This document shows positions 6,081 through 29,341 of a DNA stretch of 60,533 bases, piece after piece. The position numbers and the translations under genes are program-made. Position 1 is the first letter of the stretch, and each line of letters opens with the position of its first letter. The stretch is from a virus. Below the pieces are notes generated by a model, which was not told the DNA's origin, made no database searches, and saw only the letters and a list, made by a program, of their open reading frames with translations. The stretch covers positions 1 through 60,533 of IMG/VR virus record IMGVR_UViG_3300048625_000009. The stretch is one strand, 5' to 3'.

Positions 6081-6538
6081 ATCTCGTTTTCGTGATCGTT
6101 TTTGTCGCTTGCTTTTTGTTTAGCAGCTGCTGCATTACCGCCACGGCTCTTAATAATCTTAGCAGTCTTAACTATCGCCTTCTTACCTTGAGCTTCTTGT
6201 TTACGGGTGCCATCGTAACGTGTAGCGACAGACTTAGTGAAATTTTTATTCATACGAGTTTGTAAACCCGCATTAGTTGAATTTGATGCTTCAATTAAAT
6301 TGAATTCAGATTGTTCTTCCTCAGAAAGAGAATCCCATTCTTCTTGCGTGAATTCAACTGATTCTTCAACATTCAGTTCTGGCTCTACTGCATTGAACAT
6401 ATTCTGTGCTACTTGTACACGAAGGTCATCGAGTTTAGCAGAGATCTTTTCTGCCATTGCAGACTGAAACGCAGACTCTGTTGCCATTGCGTCTTTTTGT
6501 AACATTGCTGTTACTAGTTGTTTTACTGATTCATTCAT
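6077..6538 (-). CDS. Probable prohead core protein, gp67/gp68 position
   Basis: 153 residues from the ATG at 6538, chosen because AAGGAAAAT precedes it and it starts right after the portal stop; the longer upstream frame overlaps gene 20 and is unlikely to be used. The N-terminal half is helical (LVTAMLQKDAMATESAFQSA), the centre very acidic, and the C-terminus strongly basic and Lys/Ala/Gly-rich (last 50 residues). An acidic body with a basic tail next to the portal fits a small core/scaffold protein such as gp68 or the T4 gp67 precursor of internal peptides. A precise family is not recognised. Confidence 0.65.
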   Translation of the reverse strand: MNESVKQLVTAMLQKDAMATESAFQSAMAEKISAKLDDLRVQVAQNMFNAVEPELNVEESVEFTQEEWDSLSEEEQSEFNLIEASNSTNAGLQTRMNKNFTKSVATRYDGTRKQEAQGKKAIVKTAKIIKSRGGNAAAAKQKASDKNDHENEM

Positions 6539-6539
6539 T

Positions 6540-8132
6540 TTATTTTCCTTTAGATTTGTCTTCTGGTTCAGGAGGTTGGTTATCGTCCATTTGCGGGGCG
6601 TTGTAAGCCATATAGTTATCAGAAGCAGCTTGTCCAACTGCAGCCAATGTACCATCAAACTGCGCATTCGCCATATGATAATCTTCTTCAGAGTCCATTT
6701 CTTTCTGCATCTCTTCGATGAGTTCTTCATCTTGGAACAGAACGTTCTCTTTGATCCACTGCATAGAGTAGAACTTACCAATGTACGGTTCGATTTGTTG
6801 TAGAGCACCAAGACGAGCCATAAGGATTTCATTATCCTTTAGTTCAGCATAGTGGTTATCTTCAACGAAATCATAACGGATGTCTTGTTTTAAATCATCC
6901 CACTCATCGGCGCGCATAATATTCTTAGAGATAAGTTGGACACCCAACGCATCAGTAAAGAAGTTAGCGAAACGTTTACGTAAACGAGCAACAAACTTAT
7001 GGAACTTAATTTCATCACGAGAGATTTCAGTGGCACGACCAATTGAGAAACCTTGTTGTTCTTGCATACGACCAACAGGTACGTTTAATGCATGGAACAA
7101 TTTGTTCTGGAAGTATTCGATATCTTGGATGTCACCAAGATTCTGACCACCTGGAAGTGTAGTAATCTCAGTACCCTTACCACCCTCGCGGCGTGGCATC
7201 CAAAAGTCTTCCATCATTGACATATGTTTGCGGTCATCACGAACTTCACCAGTAGTAGCATCGTAAACGATCTTATTACGGAACTTGTTCATAATGTCAG
7301 TTACATACTGTTCGGCTTTAACCTTAGGTAAGTTACCAACGTCAATGTAGAAAATTCTACGTTCAGGGGCACGACTAATACGATAGATGACCATTGAGTC
7401 TTCGATCATCTTTAGTTGGTTTACTGGTTTGATGGCTTTGTGTAAGTATGACAACATCATACTTGTATTAGCATCTAAGAAACCAGATGGAACATAAACA
7501 ACTGAGTCTAGGGAGAGTTTAACACCCTGTGTTGTTTGCTCCGTAATTCCTTTGTCATTGAACAGGTAGTATTCTTCAATCTGTTTAATAACTTCAACAC
7601 CCTTTGGTGTTCTTTCTTTGATTACGTTCTTGATACGACGAATTTTACGTGGATCAATATAACGTAGTTCTGCAATACCATTCTTAGGATTCTTTTCATC
7701 CAAAAGGATCTGGTAGTACAAACGACCGTCAACATACCATGTACGGAAAATGTCATGGCCACGGTCATCTAGTTTGATAAGTTTCAATACATTATTGAAC
7801 TCATCGCGCATCTTTTTCTTGATAGATTCAGAGATGCTAACATCATCTAAATTGATGTTTACAGACTTACCTTTTTCATCAACGATAATTGCTTCGTTTA
7901 CGATATCTTCAATAGCTGAATCACAATCGCTGTACTGAGCAACTTCACGATAACGACGGAGAAGGTCATTCTCATTCTTAATGACCCCATCCAAATCCAT
8001 AACCATACCGTAGTACCCACCAGCATTAATACCAGTGTTTACTACGGTGGCACCGTCCTGTGCCGTTGGGGAGACCACGCTCCCTATTGGCAACTCTTTT
8101 TTACGGCTTATTTCAAATCCAAATAATTGCAT
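6540..8132 (-). CDS. 20: Portal vertex protein gp20
   Basis: 530 residues (524 in T4). It forms the dodecameric portal that nucleates head assembly and is the docking site for the terminase and neck. Recognised by the family segments YREVAQYSDCDSAIEDIVNEA (about residues 62-82), ELRYIDPRKIRR, and IEDSMVIYRISRAPERRIFY, with a long acidic helical C-terminus. The start has AAGG 8 bases upstream. It is followed by the core and protease genes in T4 order. Confidence 0.97.
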   Translation of the reverse strand: MQLFGFEISRKKELPIGSVVSPTAQDGATVVNTGINAGGYYGMVMDLDGVIKNENDLLRRYREVAQYSDCDSAIEDIVNEAIIVDEKGKSVNINLDDVSISESIKKKMRDEFNNVLKLIKLDDRGHDIFRTWYVDGRLYYQILLDEKNPKNGIAELRYIDPRKIRRIKNVIKERTPKGVEVIKQIEEYYLFNDKGITEQTTQGVKLSLDSVVYVPSGFLDANTSMMLSYLHKAIKPVNQLKMIEDSMVIYRISRAPERRIFYIDVGNLPKVKAEQYVTDIMNKFRNKIVYDATTGEVRDDRKHMSMMEDFWMPRREGGKGTEITTLPGGQNLGDIQDIEYFQNKLFHALNVPVGRMQEQQGFSIGRATEISRDEIKFHKFVARLRKRFANFFTDALGVQLISKNIMRADEWDDLKQDIRYDFVEDNHYAELKDNEILMARLGALQQIEPYIGKFYSMQWIKENVLFQDEELIEEMQKEMDSEEDYHMANAQFDGTLAAVGQAASDNYMAYNAPQMDDNQPPEPEDKSKGK

Positions 8133-23112: not shown

Positions 23113-23448
23113 TTAAATCTGTGTTATTTGTGGGTTAACAGTTACGATACCCTCGACCACTCTAGTTTTTGTGCCAGATGGTGATGTGATTTCTACGTCA
23201 TATAACCAGCGTCCCGCAGGAATAGCTGATGATTGGTCTGAATCAAGTTGGAGGCGAACTTTTCCGTTCGCTGCATCGTAGATAGATGCGGTGAAGTTAT
23301 AGGCTACAGATGAGCTATACGACTTTCTCATTTGAGACTTAGCCGTATATCCTGTTAAATTTAGCGCTTGCCCATTCGTAGCAGCAACAGTGATGATATT
23401 ACTGTAGTTAGCACCAGCGTCTACGAAAAGATTGCTAATTGTCGCCAT
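23113..23448 (-). CDS. Small structural protein, immunoglobulin-like
   Basis: 111 residues with strong beta pattern: LTGYTAKSQMRKSYSSSVAY in the first half and GKVRLQLDSDQSSAIPAG then RWLYDVEI in the second, ending VVEGIVTVNPQITQI. Such small beta-sandwich proteins occur in tail regions of many phages (similar in layout to the N-terminal domain of baseplate upper proteins). It is the first gene after a perfect TATAAATA and probably begins the transcript for the fibre genes downstream. Confidence 0.65.
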   Translation of the reverse strand: MATISNLFVDAGANYSNIITVAATNGQALNLTGYTAKSQMRKSYSSSVAYNFTASIYDAANGKVRLQLDSDQSSAIPAGRWLYDVEITSPSGTKTRVVEGIVTVNPQITQI

Positions 23449-23503: not shown

Positions 23504-24892
23504 TTAAACTGCAAGGATAGGAATTATCTTTTTAGCTTTTCTAGTCTTTTCAGGTTTCCCGTTAACCCACCAGAAAATGTCTTTTCTGTCCTGTCTCAGA
23601 GGACCATCGATGTACATAGGGACGAATCCAGTGGCTGTTTCAATCGCTGTCGCAAACACTACAATGTTATCGCTGTATGCGTTATTGCAAGAAGCCTCCC
23701 AGAGATCTCCAGAAAGGAACATACAAGCGCCTTTACAGATATGGATAACTGGACACTTAGGGCATTCTTCTCTATCTTTCCAGTGCGTAGAAGTATCTAA
23801 TCTTACAGCATCTAGATCAGAAACATGGCCAATTTTATGCGAAACACCAGCTGGGTTGTTAGAAACAGCACTCACGTTCTGGCAGGTTAGTACGTTTCCA
23901 TTTAAGTCTACTGCCATAGAACCAGACTTATCCATACCACACTTCTGTGGTAGTGATTCGATCCTTCTCCCAGAATAGATACCGTTCAAGAAACCTTTAA
24001 CTTTATCACCAATAGCCATGAAACGAGTAACCTTAGTTTCTCTAAGTTCATTATATGCTAAGTTTCTAAATTTGATTTCCTCTTCTTCATCTTGAAGAGA
24101 GTTTGTCATACCACCTTCGTCGTATGCGTCTACGAAACCACCTTCGCCAATAGTCACGTACTGGATCCAGTCTTCCCCAACATTGTCTCGAATGAAGTTG
24201 ACAAAATATCTTTCAATGTCAGCGCGACTAACGTTCTTATTGTTAATCATTGCATTGAATGAGAACTTATTTTGAGGCGCGAGAATCTTAAATGCATGAA
24301 GAATAGCTTCTTTAGATTTTGCATCTTCTAGGGGATCTGGTCCACGAACGTGTTGACCTGGACCATCGTGGGAAAAACCAATCCAGAAGCCGTGTTTGTC
24401 TAGCCACTCAATCTTATCCATATCCAACAAACTACCGTTAGTGATAACTGAGCGAGTTGAGTTTGGATACTTTTCTACAATAGCCTCTACTAATGGTTTC
24501 ATCGTTTTCCAATAAACGAAAGGCTCGCCACCCCAGAATTCAAAATGTGTACCTAGTCCCTGACCATCATCGCCGCCTTGATACCAAGTAGACATATTTT
24601 CTACGAATGGTAGAACGTCATCTGGATTAGTAGAATCTGCATGTGGGACAAAACGTTGTGAGCAATAATCACACTCAAAATTACAAGAAAGACCGAGCTG
24701 GACTTTAATTGTCTTTAGATCTTTTTTAGAGTGTTCTATCTTTGCGGGCTCAGCGACTGGTGGAGAAGTTATCGTGCCATTTAGAATATGGGTTCCATCT
24801 TGCCACTTTAGAGTGCTAAGAGAACTATCATATATCATGACTCTTTCTTCTTGATTGACTGGGTTCCATGCTTTAATTTCAAACGTTGCCAT
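23504..24892 (-). CDS. Radical SAM enzyme with SPASM domain (peptide maturase type)
   Basis: 462 residues. The radical SAM cluster motif CNFECDYC (Cys70, Cys74, Cys77; CxxxCxxC) is preceded by QLGLS. The SAM-binding GGEP is at 121-124, and TNG at 151-153. The C-terminus has the full seven-cysteine SPASM signature: Cys318-x13-G-x4-Cys337, then Cys377-x2-Cys380-x5-Cys386-x3-Cys390, then Cys402, which binds two auxiliary [4Fe-4S] clusters. SPASM enzymes mostly modify peptides or proteins (thioether or C-C crosslinks, formylglycine formation). The ribosome site overlaps the stop of the PP-loop gene, so the two are co-translated. I infer that it modifies a phage tail protein. It lacks an N-terminal RRE domain that I can recognise; the first 55 residues are a short beta region. 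Confidence 0.9.
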   Translation of the reverse strand: MATFEIKAWNPVNQEERVMIYDSSLSTLKWQDGTHILNGTITSPPVAEPAKIEHSKKDLKTIKVQLGLSCNFECDYCSQRFVPHADSTNPDDVLPFVENMSTWYQGGDDGQGLGTHFEFWGGEPFVYWKTMKPLVEAIVEKYPNSTRSVITNGSLLDMDKIEWLDKHGFWIGFSHDGPGQHVRGPDPLEDAKSKEAILHAFKILAPQNKFSFNAMINNKNVSRADIERYFVNFIRDNVGEDWIQYVTIGEGGFVDAYDEGGMTNSLQDEEEEIKFRNLAYNELRETKVTRFMAIGDKVKGFLNGIYSGRRIESLPQKCGMDKSGSMAVDLNGNVLTCQNVSAVSNNPAGVSHKIGHVSDLDAVRLDTSTHWKDREECPKCPVIHICKGACMFLSGDLWEASCNNAYSDNIVVFATAIETATGFVPMYIDGPLRQDRKDIFWWVNGKPEKTRKAKKIIPILAV

Positions 24893-24900
24893 TATTTACC

Positions 24901-25950
24901 TCAATTTTGTGGGGGTTGTGCGTATATATTTTTGTATCCATCAAGTAAAAATAACCATGTTGGATCAGTAGCTAAGAAAGAAGAAATACGTTTTTCTTTA
25001 TTTTTAGCGTAGTGGGTTTCACCAAACATCTCATCTAGTACCTGACGCATTTGCCATCTATGTGTATTCGGATCACCTTTAATTTTCGTGAAAGGTTCTT
25101 TCGTATTGATAGCCCATTCTTGAAATTTTGTAGAATTGAAAAACCCATGAACTCTAGAAGCCACCTGTGGGGGTACTTGAGTTTTATGTTCATAAATTGC
25201 AGTATACCAGTCTAAGTTGAAAATACAGTACCATCTTAGATCGTTAACTGTTTCTATTTTCTTAGGTGATGTCTTTATGATTGGATCTAAAAATTCTAGT
25301 AACTCTGTATTTATGTGTTTCTCATACGGTTCATATATGGTTTCTGGAGTACCCAGTGTATGATGAAACATAGCAGTGTTGCCAGTAGCGAAAAAGTTAT
25401 CTGTTGGACCAAACAGCTGATTTCCACACATACCACTCACAAAAATTGAATCATCATCTATCTGGTAGTTGAATTCATTGATTGTAGGTTTTTGTATAAA
25501 GCAATCAAACTCGTGTTTAATTCTTCTGTCGAACATATTACCAGATTCAATAATCGAGTTGTATGTGCCATATACTCTAATCTGTTCAGGGTCATTAGCA
25601 AAATGACGAAGCAAGAACAGTATATAAGTGCTATCTATACCACCACTCCACATAACATTTATTTTCTTACCTAATGATAGCAGTTCTTTCGCTCTAATCT
25701 CAGAAATATCAAAAAATGATTTATTATATCCATCTATCTTAGATGGCATAGGATGCAGGTCTGGGGTAATATTGAGGAAGTGTGGTAGGTGATTGGTTCT
25801 ATCGTAAACTACGTTGAACCTATTCATCCCAAACTTTTCATACTGATTGAAAAGTGCGGCGTTGTAAGAAGCTGAATAATAATCACTGAATATATGGTTG
25901 TTGCTACGAATAACGTCGCAAACTTTATGGGTGTTATAGTATAAAATCAT
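24901..25950 (-). CDS. PP-loop ATPase (asparagine-synthetase-like)
   Basis: 349 residues with the PP-loop signature INVMWSGGIDSTYILFLLRHF start at about residue 97; SGGIDS is at 102-107. Proteins with this loop activate a carboxyl or carbonyl group as the adenylate (asparagine synthetase C-domain, lasso-peptide cyclases, QueC, tRNA thiolases). No N-terminal glutaminase domain is present: the protein does not start with Cys2 and has no amidotransferase motifs. No CxxC zinc cluster as in QueC is seen. The C-terminal HRWQMRQVLDEMFGETHYAKNK is reminiscent of asparagine synthetase C-terminal helices. GAGGAC precedes the ATG. It is coupled to the radical SAM gene and separated from the upstream gene by a terminator. 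It may activate a protein carboxylate for amide or ester formation; the substrate is unknown. Confidence 0.8.
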   Translation of the reverse strand: MILYYNTHKVCDVIRSNNHIFSDYYSASYNAALFNQYEKFGMNRFNVVYDRTNHLPHFLNITPDLHPMPSKIDGYNKSFFDISEIRAKELLSLGKKINVMWSGGIDSTYILFLLRHFANDPEQIRVYGTYNSIIESGNMFDRRIKHEFDCFIQKPTINEFNYQIDDDSIFVSGMCGNQLFGPTDNFFATGNTAMFHHTLGTPETIYEPYEKHINTELLEFLDPIIKTSPKKIETVNDLRWYCIFNLDWYTAIYEHKTQVPPQVASRVHGFFNSTKFQEWAINTKEPFTKIKGDPNTHRWQMRQVLDEMFGETHYAKNKEKRISSFLATDPTWLFLLDGYKNIYAQPPQN

Positions 25951-25965
25951 AATGTCCTCGAAATG

Positions 25966-25991
25966 AAAAAGGGGATGACTTGCATCCCCTT
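25966..25991 (-). terminator. Intrinsic terminator after TRAP-type binding-protein gene
   Basis: A 9-bp stem (AAGGGGATG/CATCCCCTT) with a 5-base loop followed by a T-run on the minus strand. It lies 20 bases after the stop of the binding-protein gene and before the ribosome site of the PP-loop gene, which has no obvious promoter of its own. Confidence 0.85.
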
Positions 25992-26010
25992 ACATAATCT
26001 ACTTAGTCAC

Positions 26011-26955
26011 TTAGTGTAACTGAATTTTCTGAACTAGACCTGGAGTGAAATAGTCAGCAAACTTGTCATACACTGCAGAAGTTGCTTGGACGAATTTAGT
26101 CTTTTCTTCTTCAGACATAGTCACCAACTGAACACCCTTTGCTTGGAAGTCAGCGATAATCCCTGGAACATCAGCAACAGACTCACGACGTTCTTGGCGT
26201 GCAGCAACGAAAGCAGCATCAGAAAGAATCTGTTGAGTTTCTTCGTCGAACTGTGACATCCAATCTTTGTTAACGATAATGCTAGTCAACAAGAGGTTGT
26301 GATTAGTTTCATTGATGTATCCAAACGCTTCAGTTTGGTTTAATGGGAATACACGAACGTATGTAGACTCACCACCATCAACTAGACCAGCCTTGCCAGC
26401 TTCAGTCAAGTGTTCAATATCGATAGATTGGTTTGGAGTAGCACCTAGTGTAGAGAAAATTTCCATACATACTGGGCTCTTGCTAGTGCGGATGTCCATA
26501 CCTTGGAAGTCTTCAACTTTAGTGATAGCCTTCTTAGCTGGAACAATTTTGTAACCACCAGAGTATGTGAATGCTAGACCTTGGACATTGCTTTTAGCAG
26601 CAACACCAGCTAATAATCCTTTACCGATTTCACCTTCTAAAACACGATCGACGTGGTCATGGTCAGAGAATAAGAATGGAAGATCTAATGCATGAAGATC
26701 TTTATTATAGTCGCCTAGCCAGTTAGAATAAATGTGGCTCATTTCAATAGCACCAGTATCGATCAAGTTCAATAGATCGTGCTTAGTGATAGCCTTGCCA
26801 CTGTTATATTTGCTAGAATAATCTGTTAAAGAAAGAACTTCGATGACAAAAGCACCGTTTGTTTTCTGATTAACTTCTTTAGCGAATCGTTCTGCTACTT
26901 TCAAAAACAAACCGATTGGTTCGTGGGCGATAACCCATTTTACATGTTTAGTCAT
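26011..26955 (-). CDS. TRAP-transporter-type solute-binding protein (DctP-like), no signal peptide
   Basis: 314 residues from the ATG at 26955 (AAGGAA upstream; a longer frame to 27012 overlaps the previous gene). It has the DctP fold landmarks: ALDLPFLFSDHDHVDRVLEG (about 89-108), LAFTYSGGYKIVPAKKAI, VEDFQGMDIRTSKSP with the conserved carboxylate-contacting Arg156, and GLVDGGESTYV. TRAP binding proteins are normally periplasmic and capture C4-dicarboxylates or related acids, but here the N-terminus (MTKHVKWVIAHEP) goes straight into the mature fold with no signal sequence and no membrane partner genes nearby. It is thus cytoplasmic, in the virion, or exported otherwise. It sits in the distal fibre region, two genes after a cysteine-rich fibre gene. 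It may be a tail component or an enzyme-system partner. Confidence 0.85.
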   Translation of the reverse strand: MTKHVKWVIAHEPIGLFLKVAERFAKEVNQKTNGAFVIEVLSLTDYSSKYNSGKAITKHDLLNLIDTGAIEMSHIYSNWLGDYNKDLHALDLPFLFSDHDHVDRVLEGEIGKGLLAGVAAKSNVQGLAFTYSGGYKIVPAKKAITKVEDFQGMDIRTSKSPVCMEIFSTLGATPNQSIDIEHLTEAGKAGLVDGGESTYVRVFPLNQTEAFGYINETNHNLLLTSIIVNKDWMSQFDEETQQILSDAAFVAARQERRESVADVPGIIADFQAKGVQLVTMSEEEKTKFVQATSAVYDKFADYFTPGLVQKIQLH

Positions 26956-26956
26956 T

Positions 26957-27268
26957 TTAGTTTCCTTGTAAGACTGTTTTAACGAAAACCCAAGTTTCTG
27001 TTTTAGTGTCAAAATTTATAACTTTTTTCAACACTGGAATTTTATTTTCTATAATTTTATTTATAGTTTCTTCTGGAATATCCTCAGTATTTATAACATC
27101 GGACTTTAGTATCACCATCCCTCTATAACCATATTCTTCACAAGTTGATTTATAATGGAAATAGTCTTTTATTGTGTGTAAATTACCATAATCAGAGGGG
27201 TTTCCAAAGTCGTCATACTTTGGAAACTCATTTACTTCTATCAAAACTTCATTAATATATGGGGTCAT
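26957..27268 (-). CDS. Small unknown protein in fibre/modification region
   Basis: 103 residues, acidic N-terminus (VNEFPKYDDFGNPSDYGN) and mixed alpha/beta pattern. I do not recognise a family and see no membrane segment or metal motif. The stop is one base from the start of the binding-protein gene, and it is 2 bases after the 284-aa gene, so it is part of the same unit. It has no clear ribosome site and is probably translationally coupled. Two TATAAATA sequences lie inside it. Confidence 0.55.
   Translation of the reverse strand: MTPYINEVLIEVNEFPKYDDFGNPSDYGNLHTIKDYFHYKSTCEEYGYRGMVILKSDVINTEDIPEETINKIIENKIPVLKKVINFDTKTETWVFVKTVLQGN
27058..27095 (-). promoter_or_regulatory. Tandem TATAAATA late-promoter matches upstream of binding-protein gene
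   Basis: Two perfect octamers on the minus strand (27088-27095 and 27058-27065), 30 bases apart and about 100-140 bases before the binding-protein ATG. They lie within the 103-aa coding region. Either could make a short mono-cistronic mRNA ending at the terminator at 25966. Confidence 0.5.
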
Positions 27269-27270
27269 TT

Positions 27271-28125
27271 TTAAGATAGAGTTCTATTAAATGAAGCAAC
27301 GCCAGTGTAAGAATACCATCCAAATTTAACTCTAACCTGTTCTCCAGAATTCATACCATCTGTGCTAACGAGAACACTTCCAATACCATTAGTTAATGGG
27401 ATTCTGGTTTTGTTAACACTGCCATATATTGGATCGACGAAAACGTCTGTGATATCAGGATTATTAACTTCTACTTGTAAAGAAATTTGATCACCAGCTG
27501 CAGTAGTTGGCTCAGAAGCAGTAATAGAAATAGTCGCCATCATTTGAGTGGCAAATTTAGTACCTTCAGTGAATGGTACAACATTAGTGCTAGTTGCGGC
27601 AGGACCACCAACAGTTGTAATGACTCCGCTATCTTCTGCAGTAGAATATGTTAATAAAACTAAATCTGTGATAGAACTTGTCTTAGAAGGAACAAAAATC
27701 TTTAATGGGCAAGAAAGAGTTTGATTTTTTTCCACAAACAAGTTTGGTCTATCTTGGAAAGATGACGTGTACACATTAACAATATCTGATTGTTTTACAG
27801 TATAAGTTCCCTCTTTATTTGCAATATCTGCTAGAGTAGAGTCTTTAACTGTCCACAAACTTTGGTCTGAAAAATTACCTGCAGATTTGATAACATCAAA
27901 TGGGATAGTAATATCAATAACTGTAGTTCCACCAGTGATACAATTTAATTTATACTCAATACTATCTCCAGAGATATTAATCCAGTTTTCCATTTCTATA
28001 TTGGATAGTGAAACTGGTGTATCTGAAGGAATTTCCTCTTCAGAGATAGTTGGTTGTTCTATTTCAATATTAGCATATTGAAGAATCTGTTTAGTGGAAA
28101 CATCGAATGGTTTAATTTTTAACAT
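27271..28125 (-). CDS. Unknown structural-type protein with Ig-like C-terminus
   Basis: 284 residues, beta-rich, T/S/V-rich. The first 100 residues are mixed (MLKIKPFDVSTKQILQYAN). The C-terminal 80 residues (ATISITASEPTTAAGDQISL then QVEVNNPDITDVFVDPIYGS) look like an immunoglobulin-like domain. The single Cys near residue 62 and one near 138 do not form a motif. It is just after the cysteine-tailed fibre gene with an AGGAAC ribosome site. I infer a fibre-associated virion protein; the exact role is unknown. Confidence 0.6.
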   Translation of the reverse strand: MLKIKPFDVSTKQILQYANIEIEQPTISEEEIPSDTPVSLSNIEMENWINISGDSIEYKLNCITGGTTVIDITIPFDVIKSAGNFSDQSLWTVKDSTLADIANKEGTYTVKQSDIVNVYTSSFQDRPNLFVEKNQTLSCPLKIFVPSKTSSITDLVLLTYSTAEDSGVITTVGGPAATSTNVVPFTEGTKFATQMMATISITASEPTTAAGDQISLQVEVNNPDITDVFVDPIYGSVNKTRIPLTNGIGSVLVSTDGMNSGEQVRVKFGWYSYTGVASFNRTLS

Positions 28126-28141
28126 ATGTTATGTTCCTAGA

Positions 28142-29341
28142 TTAGCAGTTGCAAGCGCAGTTGCAATTGTATGTATACTGGATACTGTAGTAGGTTCTAT
28201 ATTGATGAACACCACCGCCCGTATCAAATACTTCGCCACCTGCTGGTCCAACAATCTGGTTACACTGAATATTACCGCAATTATAACGGCGACCAGAGTC
28301 ACGAGCCGCTGCTTGTTCAGCAGTAACATAACCAGTAGCTAAGTATGGCTTGCTAGAAACGTTACCCCATGCAACTGCGTTGGCAGAACCAGCAGTAGTA
28401 GCATAAGTTGCGTTAGTTGCAGTAGCAGCGTTACCACCGATGTTTGTTACAATAACAGCACCAGTAGAACCTTGAACAGAAGTAACAGGAACAGAAACAA
28501 TAACAGCACCAGTGTTACCTTGAACAGATGTTACGTTTGCGTTAATAGTTGGGTTACCAGAAACACCGTTTCCGTTATCGACTGTGATACCAGCACCAGC
28601 AGTAATAGTACGTCCAGTAGCAGTACCAGCACCAGTAAGAGCAACCATACCAGTGGAAACGCCAGAAACAGCAGATAACTGGGCATTATACGCTTGAACA
28701 TCTGTACCGATAGCTAGACCAAGAGTAGAGCGAGCATTTGATGCAGCTGCAGAACCCATCAAACCACGCATATAAGATGTCGCAGTATAAGTACCAGCAG
28801 TACCAGAACCAGTGAAATATGGAGCAGTATCAGCAGCAGATGTTAAACTCGCTAAAGCAGCTAGTTCAGCGTCATAAGCCTGCACATCTGTACCGATGGC
28901 TAGACCAAGAGAGGTACGAGCACCAGCAGCAGTAGTAGCACCAGTACCACCAGAGCCAATGGCTAACTGAGTAGTAAGAGTGATAGAACCACTAGTAATA
29001 GCAGCAGCGCCACTAAATGTACCAGAGAATGTAGTACCAGTAATTACGTTACCCGTAAAGTTACCACTAGAGTCACGAGTAACAACAGAACTCTTATCTG
29101 TGGCAACTGGTAGACCAGAAGATGTATTTAAACCGTCGATTAAATCAGCGTCTAGACCAGATCCAGTTCCATCGACAGTAACCAACTTAGCCAGAACGTC
29201 TGCTGCAGTGTAGCTAGCTGCAGTCTGTGCTAATTGGAGTTGTGTATTTAAGTTATTAAAGTTTGCATCGACTTCGGAGTTAGTAAGAGGACTACCCTTA
29301 CCAGCACGAGTCGTAATTGTTGCAGCGCTAACTGATGACAT
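28142..29341 (-). CDS. Tail-fibre protein with cysteine-rich C-terminal tail
   Basis: 399 residues. The first 340 residues are fibre-like: A/G/S/T-rich repeats, two near copies of [12 protein letters not shown] (about 139 and 208), SVQGxTGAVIV repeated (about 285 and 302), and [16 protein letters not shown], typical of fibre shafts. The last 50 residues are quite different: [15 protein letters not shown] and, after a short Y-rich stretch ([11 protein letters not shown]), the terminal YNCNCACNC. Six cysteines lie in the last 50 residues and none elsewhere. This could be a metal-binding tip or the modified region of the fibre. It precedes the gene set that includes the PP-loop and radical SAM enzymes. 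Ribosome site AAGGAAAAA. Confidence 0.8.

What the first reader, a model, noticed from the sequence alone, without database searches (positions are those of the whole stretch)
23504..29341. Candidate tail-fibre post-translational modification module: radical SAM/SPASM + PP-loop ATPase + cysteine-tailed fibre + TRAP-type binding protein
Seen: a gene coding a radical SAM enzyme with CxxxCxxC (Cys70/74/77) and a perfect seven-cysteine SPASM signature follows, with overlapping ribosome site, a PP-loop protein with SGGIDS. A few genes upstream is a fibre whose only six cysteines are in its last 50 residues, ending YNCNCACNC. Known: SPASM enzymes mostly act on peptides or proteins, and PP-loop ATPases of the asparagine-synthetase type activate carboxylates (as in lasso peptide cyclisation). 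Inferred: the pair modifies a phage tail protein, the Cys-rich fibre tail being the best substrate candidate, in a region where T4 has genes 11/12/wac. I know of no described tail-fibre maturation by such a pair, though I cannot search.
Basis: partly seen in the sequence, partly recalled or inferred. Interest (0 to 1): 0.88.

Follow-up and report, generated by a model that had tools for sequence, protein, structure and literature searches.

The report
Enzyme module for cysteine-tipped phage tail fibres
Many bacterial viruses and proviruses pair a radical-chemistry enzyme with a tail fibre that ends in an alternating cysteine tract, which suggests an undescribed chemical modification of the part that touches the host, though the chemistry itself has not been shown.

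Summary
The window (a T4-like myovirus contig) encodes a 462-aa radical SAM/SPASM enzyme (all 10 cluster cysteines invariant in 38 relatives), an AsnB-like PP-loop enzyme, a TRAP-type binding protein without signal peptide, and a fibre whose six cysteines lie in its last 45 residues, ending NCNCACNC. Of 92 relatives of the enzyme with enough flanking DNA, 87 have an alternating-cysteine ORF within 4.5 kb on the same strand (89 by eye; 2/156 on the opposite strand). Conversely, all 29 fibre-type ORFs ending NCNCNC or NCNCxCNC with enough flank have the enzyme; those without it that I checked end just downstream of the tract. Of 47 phage loci sharing only the fibre shaft, none has the enzyme. 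The link spans T4-like phages, Achromobacter siphoviruses and proteobacterial genomes, including fibres whose tract precedes a self-processing Hint domain. The PP-loop/TRAP cassette is optional and replaced elsewhere by 2OG-Fe(II) oxygenases. Most likely the SPASM enzyme modifies the fibre-tip tract; the reaction (cross-link, oxidation or other) is unknown. No described family or paper in the searched libraries covers it.

The parts
28142..29341 (-). Tail-fibre protein, 399 aa, only six Cys (355, 360, 393, 395, 397, 399); candidate substrate
   Evidence: (PHROG tail fibre); homologues with NC tails
28145..28168 (-). Alternating tract NCNCACNC, the last 8 residues of the fibre
   Evidence: sequence; same tract in relatives
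27271..28125 (-). Ig-like protein (p28), 284 aa; recurrent third gene, possible tip adhesin or adapter
   Evidence: present in 54 of 80 loci with room; AF2 pLDDT 88 with Ig-like C-terminal domain, best PDB hits intimin/invasin domains, distant
26957..27268 (-). Small protein p27, 103 aa, first gene of the optional cassette p27-DctP-PP-loop
26011..26955 (-). TRAP-type (DctP) solute-binding protein, 314 aa from the ATG at 26955, no signal peptide; optional cassette
24901..25950 (-). AsnB-like PP-loop ATP-dependent synthetase without glutaminase domain, 349 aa; optional partner
   Evidence: pLDDT 91; asparagine/carbapenam synthetase hits
23504..24892 (-). Radical SAM/SPASM enzyme, 462 aa; core enzyme
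   Evidence: (phrog_1802 1.3e-64)

Best explanation
A phage-encoded maturation system for the tail-fibre tip. Shown: a conserved radical SAM/SPASM enzyme is encoded within a few kb of a fibre (or short tail protein, or Cys-rich ORF) carrying an alternating (N/A/D-Cys)n tract, usually at its extreme C terminus, and no fibre-type tract was found without it where enough downstream DNA is visible. Inferred: the enzyme recognises the tract before or during virion assembly, uses its SAM-cleaving cluster to abstract a hydrogen and its SPASM clusters to bind the cysteines, and installs a cysteine-based modification. Thioether cross-links are the most likely product, within a chain or between the three chains of the fibre, stiffening, capping or functionalising the tip, where the Ig-like p28 protein may dock. 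The AsnB-like PP-loop enzyme (in this clade with a cytosolic carboxylate-binding DctP protein) or, elsewhere, 2OG-Fe(II) oxygenases would be interchangeable tailoring enzymes. My estimates: about 0.8 that the tract is the substrate, about 0.35 for thioether chemistry.
For: Forward: 87/92 enzyme loci with room have a same-strand tract ORF within 4.5 kb (median gap 980 nt), 89/92 by eye; antisense 2/156. Reverse: a DNA scan for C-terminal NCNCNC/NCNCxCNC gave 94 fibre/p28-type ORF loci; 65 have the enzyme in the stretch, 29/29 of those with room; whole-record search recovers it in 10 more records plus one 39-residue fragment, and the four longest remaining records that I read end within 1.5 kb downstream of the tract. 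Negative control: 47 loci sharing only the fibre shaft have 0 enzymes. Tract and enzyme stay together across architectures: tandem mini-fibres (L036, L048, L085); fibre with a chaperone-type coil end and the tract in the next gene (L351, L353); tract directly before a Hint domain (JWF, 2-1, L275, L308-L312). All cluster cysteines invariant. NCBIfam neighbours are peptide/protein maturases; the PDB profile search finds CteB and anSME among others. Accessory enzymes switch about 9 times on the enzyme tree while the tract stays.
Against: No experiment, mass shift or enzyme-substrate model. The tract suits metal binding as it stands. In eleven loci a different ORF ends in NCNCNC without this enzyme, so the tract alone does not require it. 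In part of the family the tract is internal, before a 'SKIICTKL' domain, or is a long Cys-rich stretch. Three distant bacterial loci with room show no recognisable tract (L302, L320, L323). Neighbouring genes on related phage genomes are linked, which inflates co-occurrence counts.
Confidence: 0.72

Rival explanations
1. The tract is a metal- or Fe-S-binding needle tip, the cysteine counterpart of the HxH iron sites in trimeric phage fibres and spikes, and the rSAM enzyme helps cluster or metal assembly or acts elsewhere.
For: The i, i+2 spacing equals HxH; six His from three HxH copies bind iron in R-pyocin fibres, with similar sites in T4 gp37 and P2 gpV (PMC6116203). Some relatives carry His-rich stretches just before the tract (DPHHHH..NCTNCNCNC).
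Against: From general knowledge, HxH fibres need no dedicated enzyme, whereas the fibre-type tract is coupled to this enzyme. I know of no SPASM enzyme that assembles clusters in other proteins.
Confidence: 0.12
2. The enzyme modifies another neighbour, such as the Ig-like p28 protein or another tail protein, and the fibre cysteines only form disulfides.
For: p28 is co-conserved in 54 of 80 loci.
Against: p28 was not found in some tract-bearing loci (L049, L057, L066), and it has few cysteines and low conservation. The enzyme is still present when the tract sits in another gene.
Confidence: 0.07
3. The rSAM, PP-loop and DctP genes form a small-molecule pathway (auxiliary metabolism) that happens to sit in the tail region.
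For: DctP proteins bind carboxylates; enzymes of the AsnB type activate small acids.
Against: The cassette is optional while the tract is nearly constant. Gene neighbours are virion and tail genes across unrelated phages.
Confidence: 0.05
4. The Cys-rich ORFs are precursors of a released peptide product (a RiPP) rather than virion parts.
For: Some clade-2 ORFs are short and very Cys-rich (L049, L054, L059). SPASM enzymes commonly make RiPPs.
Against: In most loci the tract is on a fibre-like protein of about 200-1080 aa; no peptidase or exporter was seen among the neighbours scanned.
Confidence: 0.04

Closest known systems
Radical SAM/SPASM peptide and protein maturases (CteB/SCIFF, PapB, anaerobic sulfatase maturase, QhpD)
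   Same: Core CX3CX2C, full seven-Cys SPASM signature, a Cys-rich candidate substrate encoded nearby
   Different: Scores far below every equivalog cutoff (best 52.9 against 349 bits); the candidate substrate is a virion fibre tip, not a short RiPP precursor, sulfatase or dehydrogenase subunit
Asparagine-synthetase-type PP-loop enzymes (AsnB, beta-lactam and carbapenam synthetases, lasso cyclase)
   Same: SGGxDS loop, AsnB-like 'SGxxx[N/D]QLFG' motif, best fold hits asparagine and carbapenam synthetase
   Different: No glutaminase domain; below the Pfam cutoff (14.1 against 21 bits); low TM-scores (0.3-0.37)
HxH metal-binding trimeric fibre and spike tips (T4 gp37, P2 gpV, R-pyocin fibre; PMC6116203)
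   Same: Alternating ligand residues in a phage fibre
   Different: Cys instead of His, usually at the extreme C terminus, and coupled to a modifying enzyme
phrog_1802 (phage 'radical SAM domain-containing protein')
   Same: Same protein family (1.3e-64); includes Achromobacter phage JWF
   Different: The family is annotated with no substrate or function

Membership tests
Radical SAM superfamily | CX3CX2C cluster motif and core family match | tested here: met
   C70/C74/C77 invariant in 38; PF04055 31.4 against 29.5 bits
SPASM domain enzymes | Seven-Cys motif C-x9-15-G-x4-C-gap-C-x2-C-x5-C-x3-C-gap-C | tested here: met
   C318...G332-x4-C337...C377-x2-C380-x5-C386-x3-C390...C402, all invariant; TIGR04085 31.7 against 27 bits
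SPASM peptide/protein maturase | Acts on a peptide or protein substrate | not testable with these tools
   Only co-occurrence with the tract is shown; no biochemistry
Named maturase subfamilies (anSME, SCIFF, PapB, DynA) | NCBIfam equivalog cutoff | tested here: not met
   Best hits 50-53 bits against cutoffs of 340 or more
RiPP system | Short precursor with leader peptide, peptidase and exporter nearby | tested here: not met
   In the window the candidate substrate is a 399-aa fibre; no peptidase or exporter among the neighbours scanned
Asparagine synthetase-type PP-loop | SGGxDS pyrophosphate loop | tested here: met
   SGGIDST in the window, SGG[I/L/V]DST in all 28
Asparagine synthetase-type PP-loop | AsnB-type synthetase fold | tested here: inconclusive
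   Best hits 9b6c and 1q19, E 2-4e-4, TM 0.32-0.37
Asparagine synthetase (glutamine-hydrolysing) | N-terminal glutaminase domain and Pfam PF00733 above cutoff | tested here: not met
   No glutaminase hit; 14.1 against 21 bits
TRAP solute-binding protein (DctP) | DctP family match | tested here: met
   PF03480 172 against 23.4 bits; 4p47 3e-35
TRAP solute-binding protein (DctP) | Signal peptide for export | tested here: not met
   No N-terminal signal in the window protein or 15 homologues, by inspection
TRAP solute-binding protein (DctP) | Membrane partners DctQ/DctM in the operon | not tested
   None noticed among the module's genes; the rest of the window was not scanned for them

The most novel reading that the evidence does not exclude
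The enzyme ties the alternating cysteines of the three fibre chains into a covalently cross-linked or chemically reactive tip, so that the virus carries a radical-made chemical group at the point of host contact. This would be a class of post-translationally modified viral adhesins spread over many phages and prophages.
Probability: 0.3. Interest if true: 0.93.

Novelty: new variant of a known kind. Interest (0 to 1): 0.83.

Why it matters
The host-contacting tips of phage fibres set host range, and to my knowledge their maturation is thought to be folding, trimerisation, chaperone cleavage and metal binding. A dedicated radical SAM enzyme for the fibre tip would add a new chemistry to virion assembly and a new substrate class to the SPASM enzymes. 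The system is common (over 100 viral loci and 74 bacterial loci found), includes isolated phages (Achromobacter phages JWF and 2-1) and cultured hosts (Limnohabitans, Burkholderia paludis), and makes a directly testable prediction.

Tried and rejected
Phage-record search with the PP-loop protein gave nothing and the DctP search only distant TRAP proteins. Direct IMG/VR search with the PP-loop found only 7 loci because its patterns are too specific; profiles on neighbouring genes showed it is common. My first counting script used a faulty distance rule and under-counted; corrected. Pfam and NCBIfam give no name for most tract proteins, p28, or the JWF protein between fibre and enzyme. The Campylobacter phage rSAM hits match only the core domain (about 26%, 38% coverage), so I did not treat them as the same system. 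phiCbK was read for a Hint-fibre precedent; its Hint is in TerL, irrelevant. Paper searches for rSAM with tail fibres, NCNCNC, or Achromobacter phage found nothing relevant; preprints and most subscription papers are not held.

Full report
Observation. The 462-aa enzyme carries the radical SAM motif C70-x3-C74-x2-C77 and a complete seven-cysteine SPASM signature; all ten cysteines are invariant in 38 aligned relatives. The 349-aa PP-loop protein has SGGIDS, and its stop codon overlaps the ribosome site of the enzyme gene. The 399-aa fibre has six cysteines, all in its last 45 residues, and ends YNCNCACNC. The DctP-like protein is a true TRAP binding-protein homologue; its likely start is the ATG at 26955, and neither it nor 15 homologues shows a signal peptide. 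The contig is a T4-like myovirus fragment (T4-type terminase and baseplate wedge proteins).

Generality. The enzyme has over 100 relatives in IMG/VR, full-length relatives at 40-42% identity in Achromobacter phages JWF and 2-1, and 74 loci in bacterial genomes, mostly Burkholderiales and Alphaproteobacteria. In JWF and 2-1, phages unrelated in gene order with lambda-like tail genes, the fibre gene two upstream carries NCNCDCNCNCS or NCNCDCNCS directly before a Hint self-processing domain. In viral loci close to the window the fibre ends in NCNCNC, NCNCVCNC or NCNCACNC; in others two or three tandem 81-101 aa mini-fibres each end that way (L036, L048, L085). A more distant clade has Cys-rich ORFs directly next to the enzyme (YNCNCACTYNC...CACACAC). 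The bacterial loci were not tested one by one for being prophages.

Co-occurrence tests. Forward: of 92 enzyme loci with at least 4.5 kb upstream and 1.5 kb downstream, 87 have a same-strand alternating-Cys ORF within 4.5 kb (two more by eye, L076 and L317), against 2 of 156 on the antisense strand. Reverse: scanning IMG/VR DNA for C-terminal NCNCNC or NCNCxCNC gave 105 loci with a real ORF end. Of 94 fibre/p28-type ones, 65 have the enzyme in the fetched stretch, and all 29 with enough flank have it. Searching the whole records recovered a full enzyme in ten more records and a fragment in one, and the four longest remaining ones that I read end within 1.5 kb downstream of the tract. The short remaining contigs were judged by length only. 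Negative control: 47 loci that share only the repetitive fibre shaft have no enzyme; one has a 70-aa same-strand tract ORF. In L350, L351 and L353 the homologous fibre ends in a chaperone-type coil without cysteines and the tract sits in the next gene; in L351 and L353 the enzyme is present (L350 is truncated). These counts treat linked, related genomes as separate, so they are descriptive rather than probabilities.

Partners. The Ig-like p28 protein (27271-28125) follows the fibre and recurs in 54 of 80 loci with room. Its AF2 model (pLDDT 88) has an Ig-like C-terminal domain, nearest in the PDB to intimin and invasin domains, and matches several unnamed phage proteins. An adhesin or adapter role, like T-even gp38 on gp37, is an inference. 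The PP-loop protein is predicted confidently (pLDDT 91) and resembles asparagine, carbapenam and beta-lactam synthetases, weakly. It occurs near the enzyme in 28 of 80 loci; 2OG-Fe(II) oxygenases occur in 28; both in one (identities). On the enzyme tree (a quick search; some long branches are unsure) the PP-loop and oxygenase states each change about nine times. They therefore look like interchangeable accessories on a conserved enzyme-tract core. DctP travels with the PP-loop, and was seen only in the myovirus-type loci and L085.

Mechanism. Shown: conserved catalytic motifs and a tight enzyme-tract association across different gene arrangements. Inferred: the enzyme modifies the tract. The usual C-terminal position, the Hint domain placed so that self-cleavage would expose the tract (an expectation from Hint chemistry, not tested), and the mini-fibres all point to the tract being the functional end of a fibre. 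Known SPASM chemistry on cysteine-rich substrates is mainly thioether formation and cysteine oxidation, so a covalent cysteine modification is the leading guess. The closest structural analogue is the HxH iron site of phage fibres (PMC6116203), so metal binding is the main rival.

Novelty. No Pfam, PHROG or NCBIfam entry names the tract proteins as such or links this enzyme to a substrate, and no held paper that I found describes it. I file it as a new variant of a known kind (SPASM-type protein maturation) with a new substrate class, pending biochemistry.

Noticed in passing
L103, L162, L182 (185-190 aa ORF ending ..CGLENCNCNC or ..CGAANCNCNC); L106, L144, L170, L193 (203 aa ORF ending ..GESNCNCNC or ..GSSNCNCNC): Two other ORF families in viral contigs end in NCNCNC but have no relative of this enzyme on their records; function unknown, no family search was run on them.
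   Followed up: partly
L069:11468-12376, L085:6893-7684, L076:11481-12434: A conserved domain starting C-[SG]-K-I-I-C-T-K-L follows the tract directly in many clade-2 loci; no Pfam or NCBIfam name and no significant PHROG hit.
   Followed up: partly
L002 and L003, L275, L308-L312, L329: A Hint-type self-processing domain (CFPAGT.. or similar) begins right at the end of the Cys tract, so cleavage could create a C-terminal tract.
   Followed up: partly
L317 (Parasutterella) 6521-7917: Three tandem ORFs with CSYCSYCTYC-type repeats next to two tandem rSAM genes, apparently a divergent version of the system.
   Followed up: no
window 23113-23448: 111-aa protein related to phage L-shaped tail-fibre assembly proteins (phrog_3304), conserved just downstream of the module in most myovirus relatives.
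   Followed up: partly
L085:14788-15822: This contig carries a second, divergent PP-loop paralogue (29% identical) in addition to the main one.
   Followed up: no
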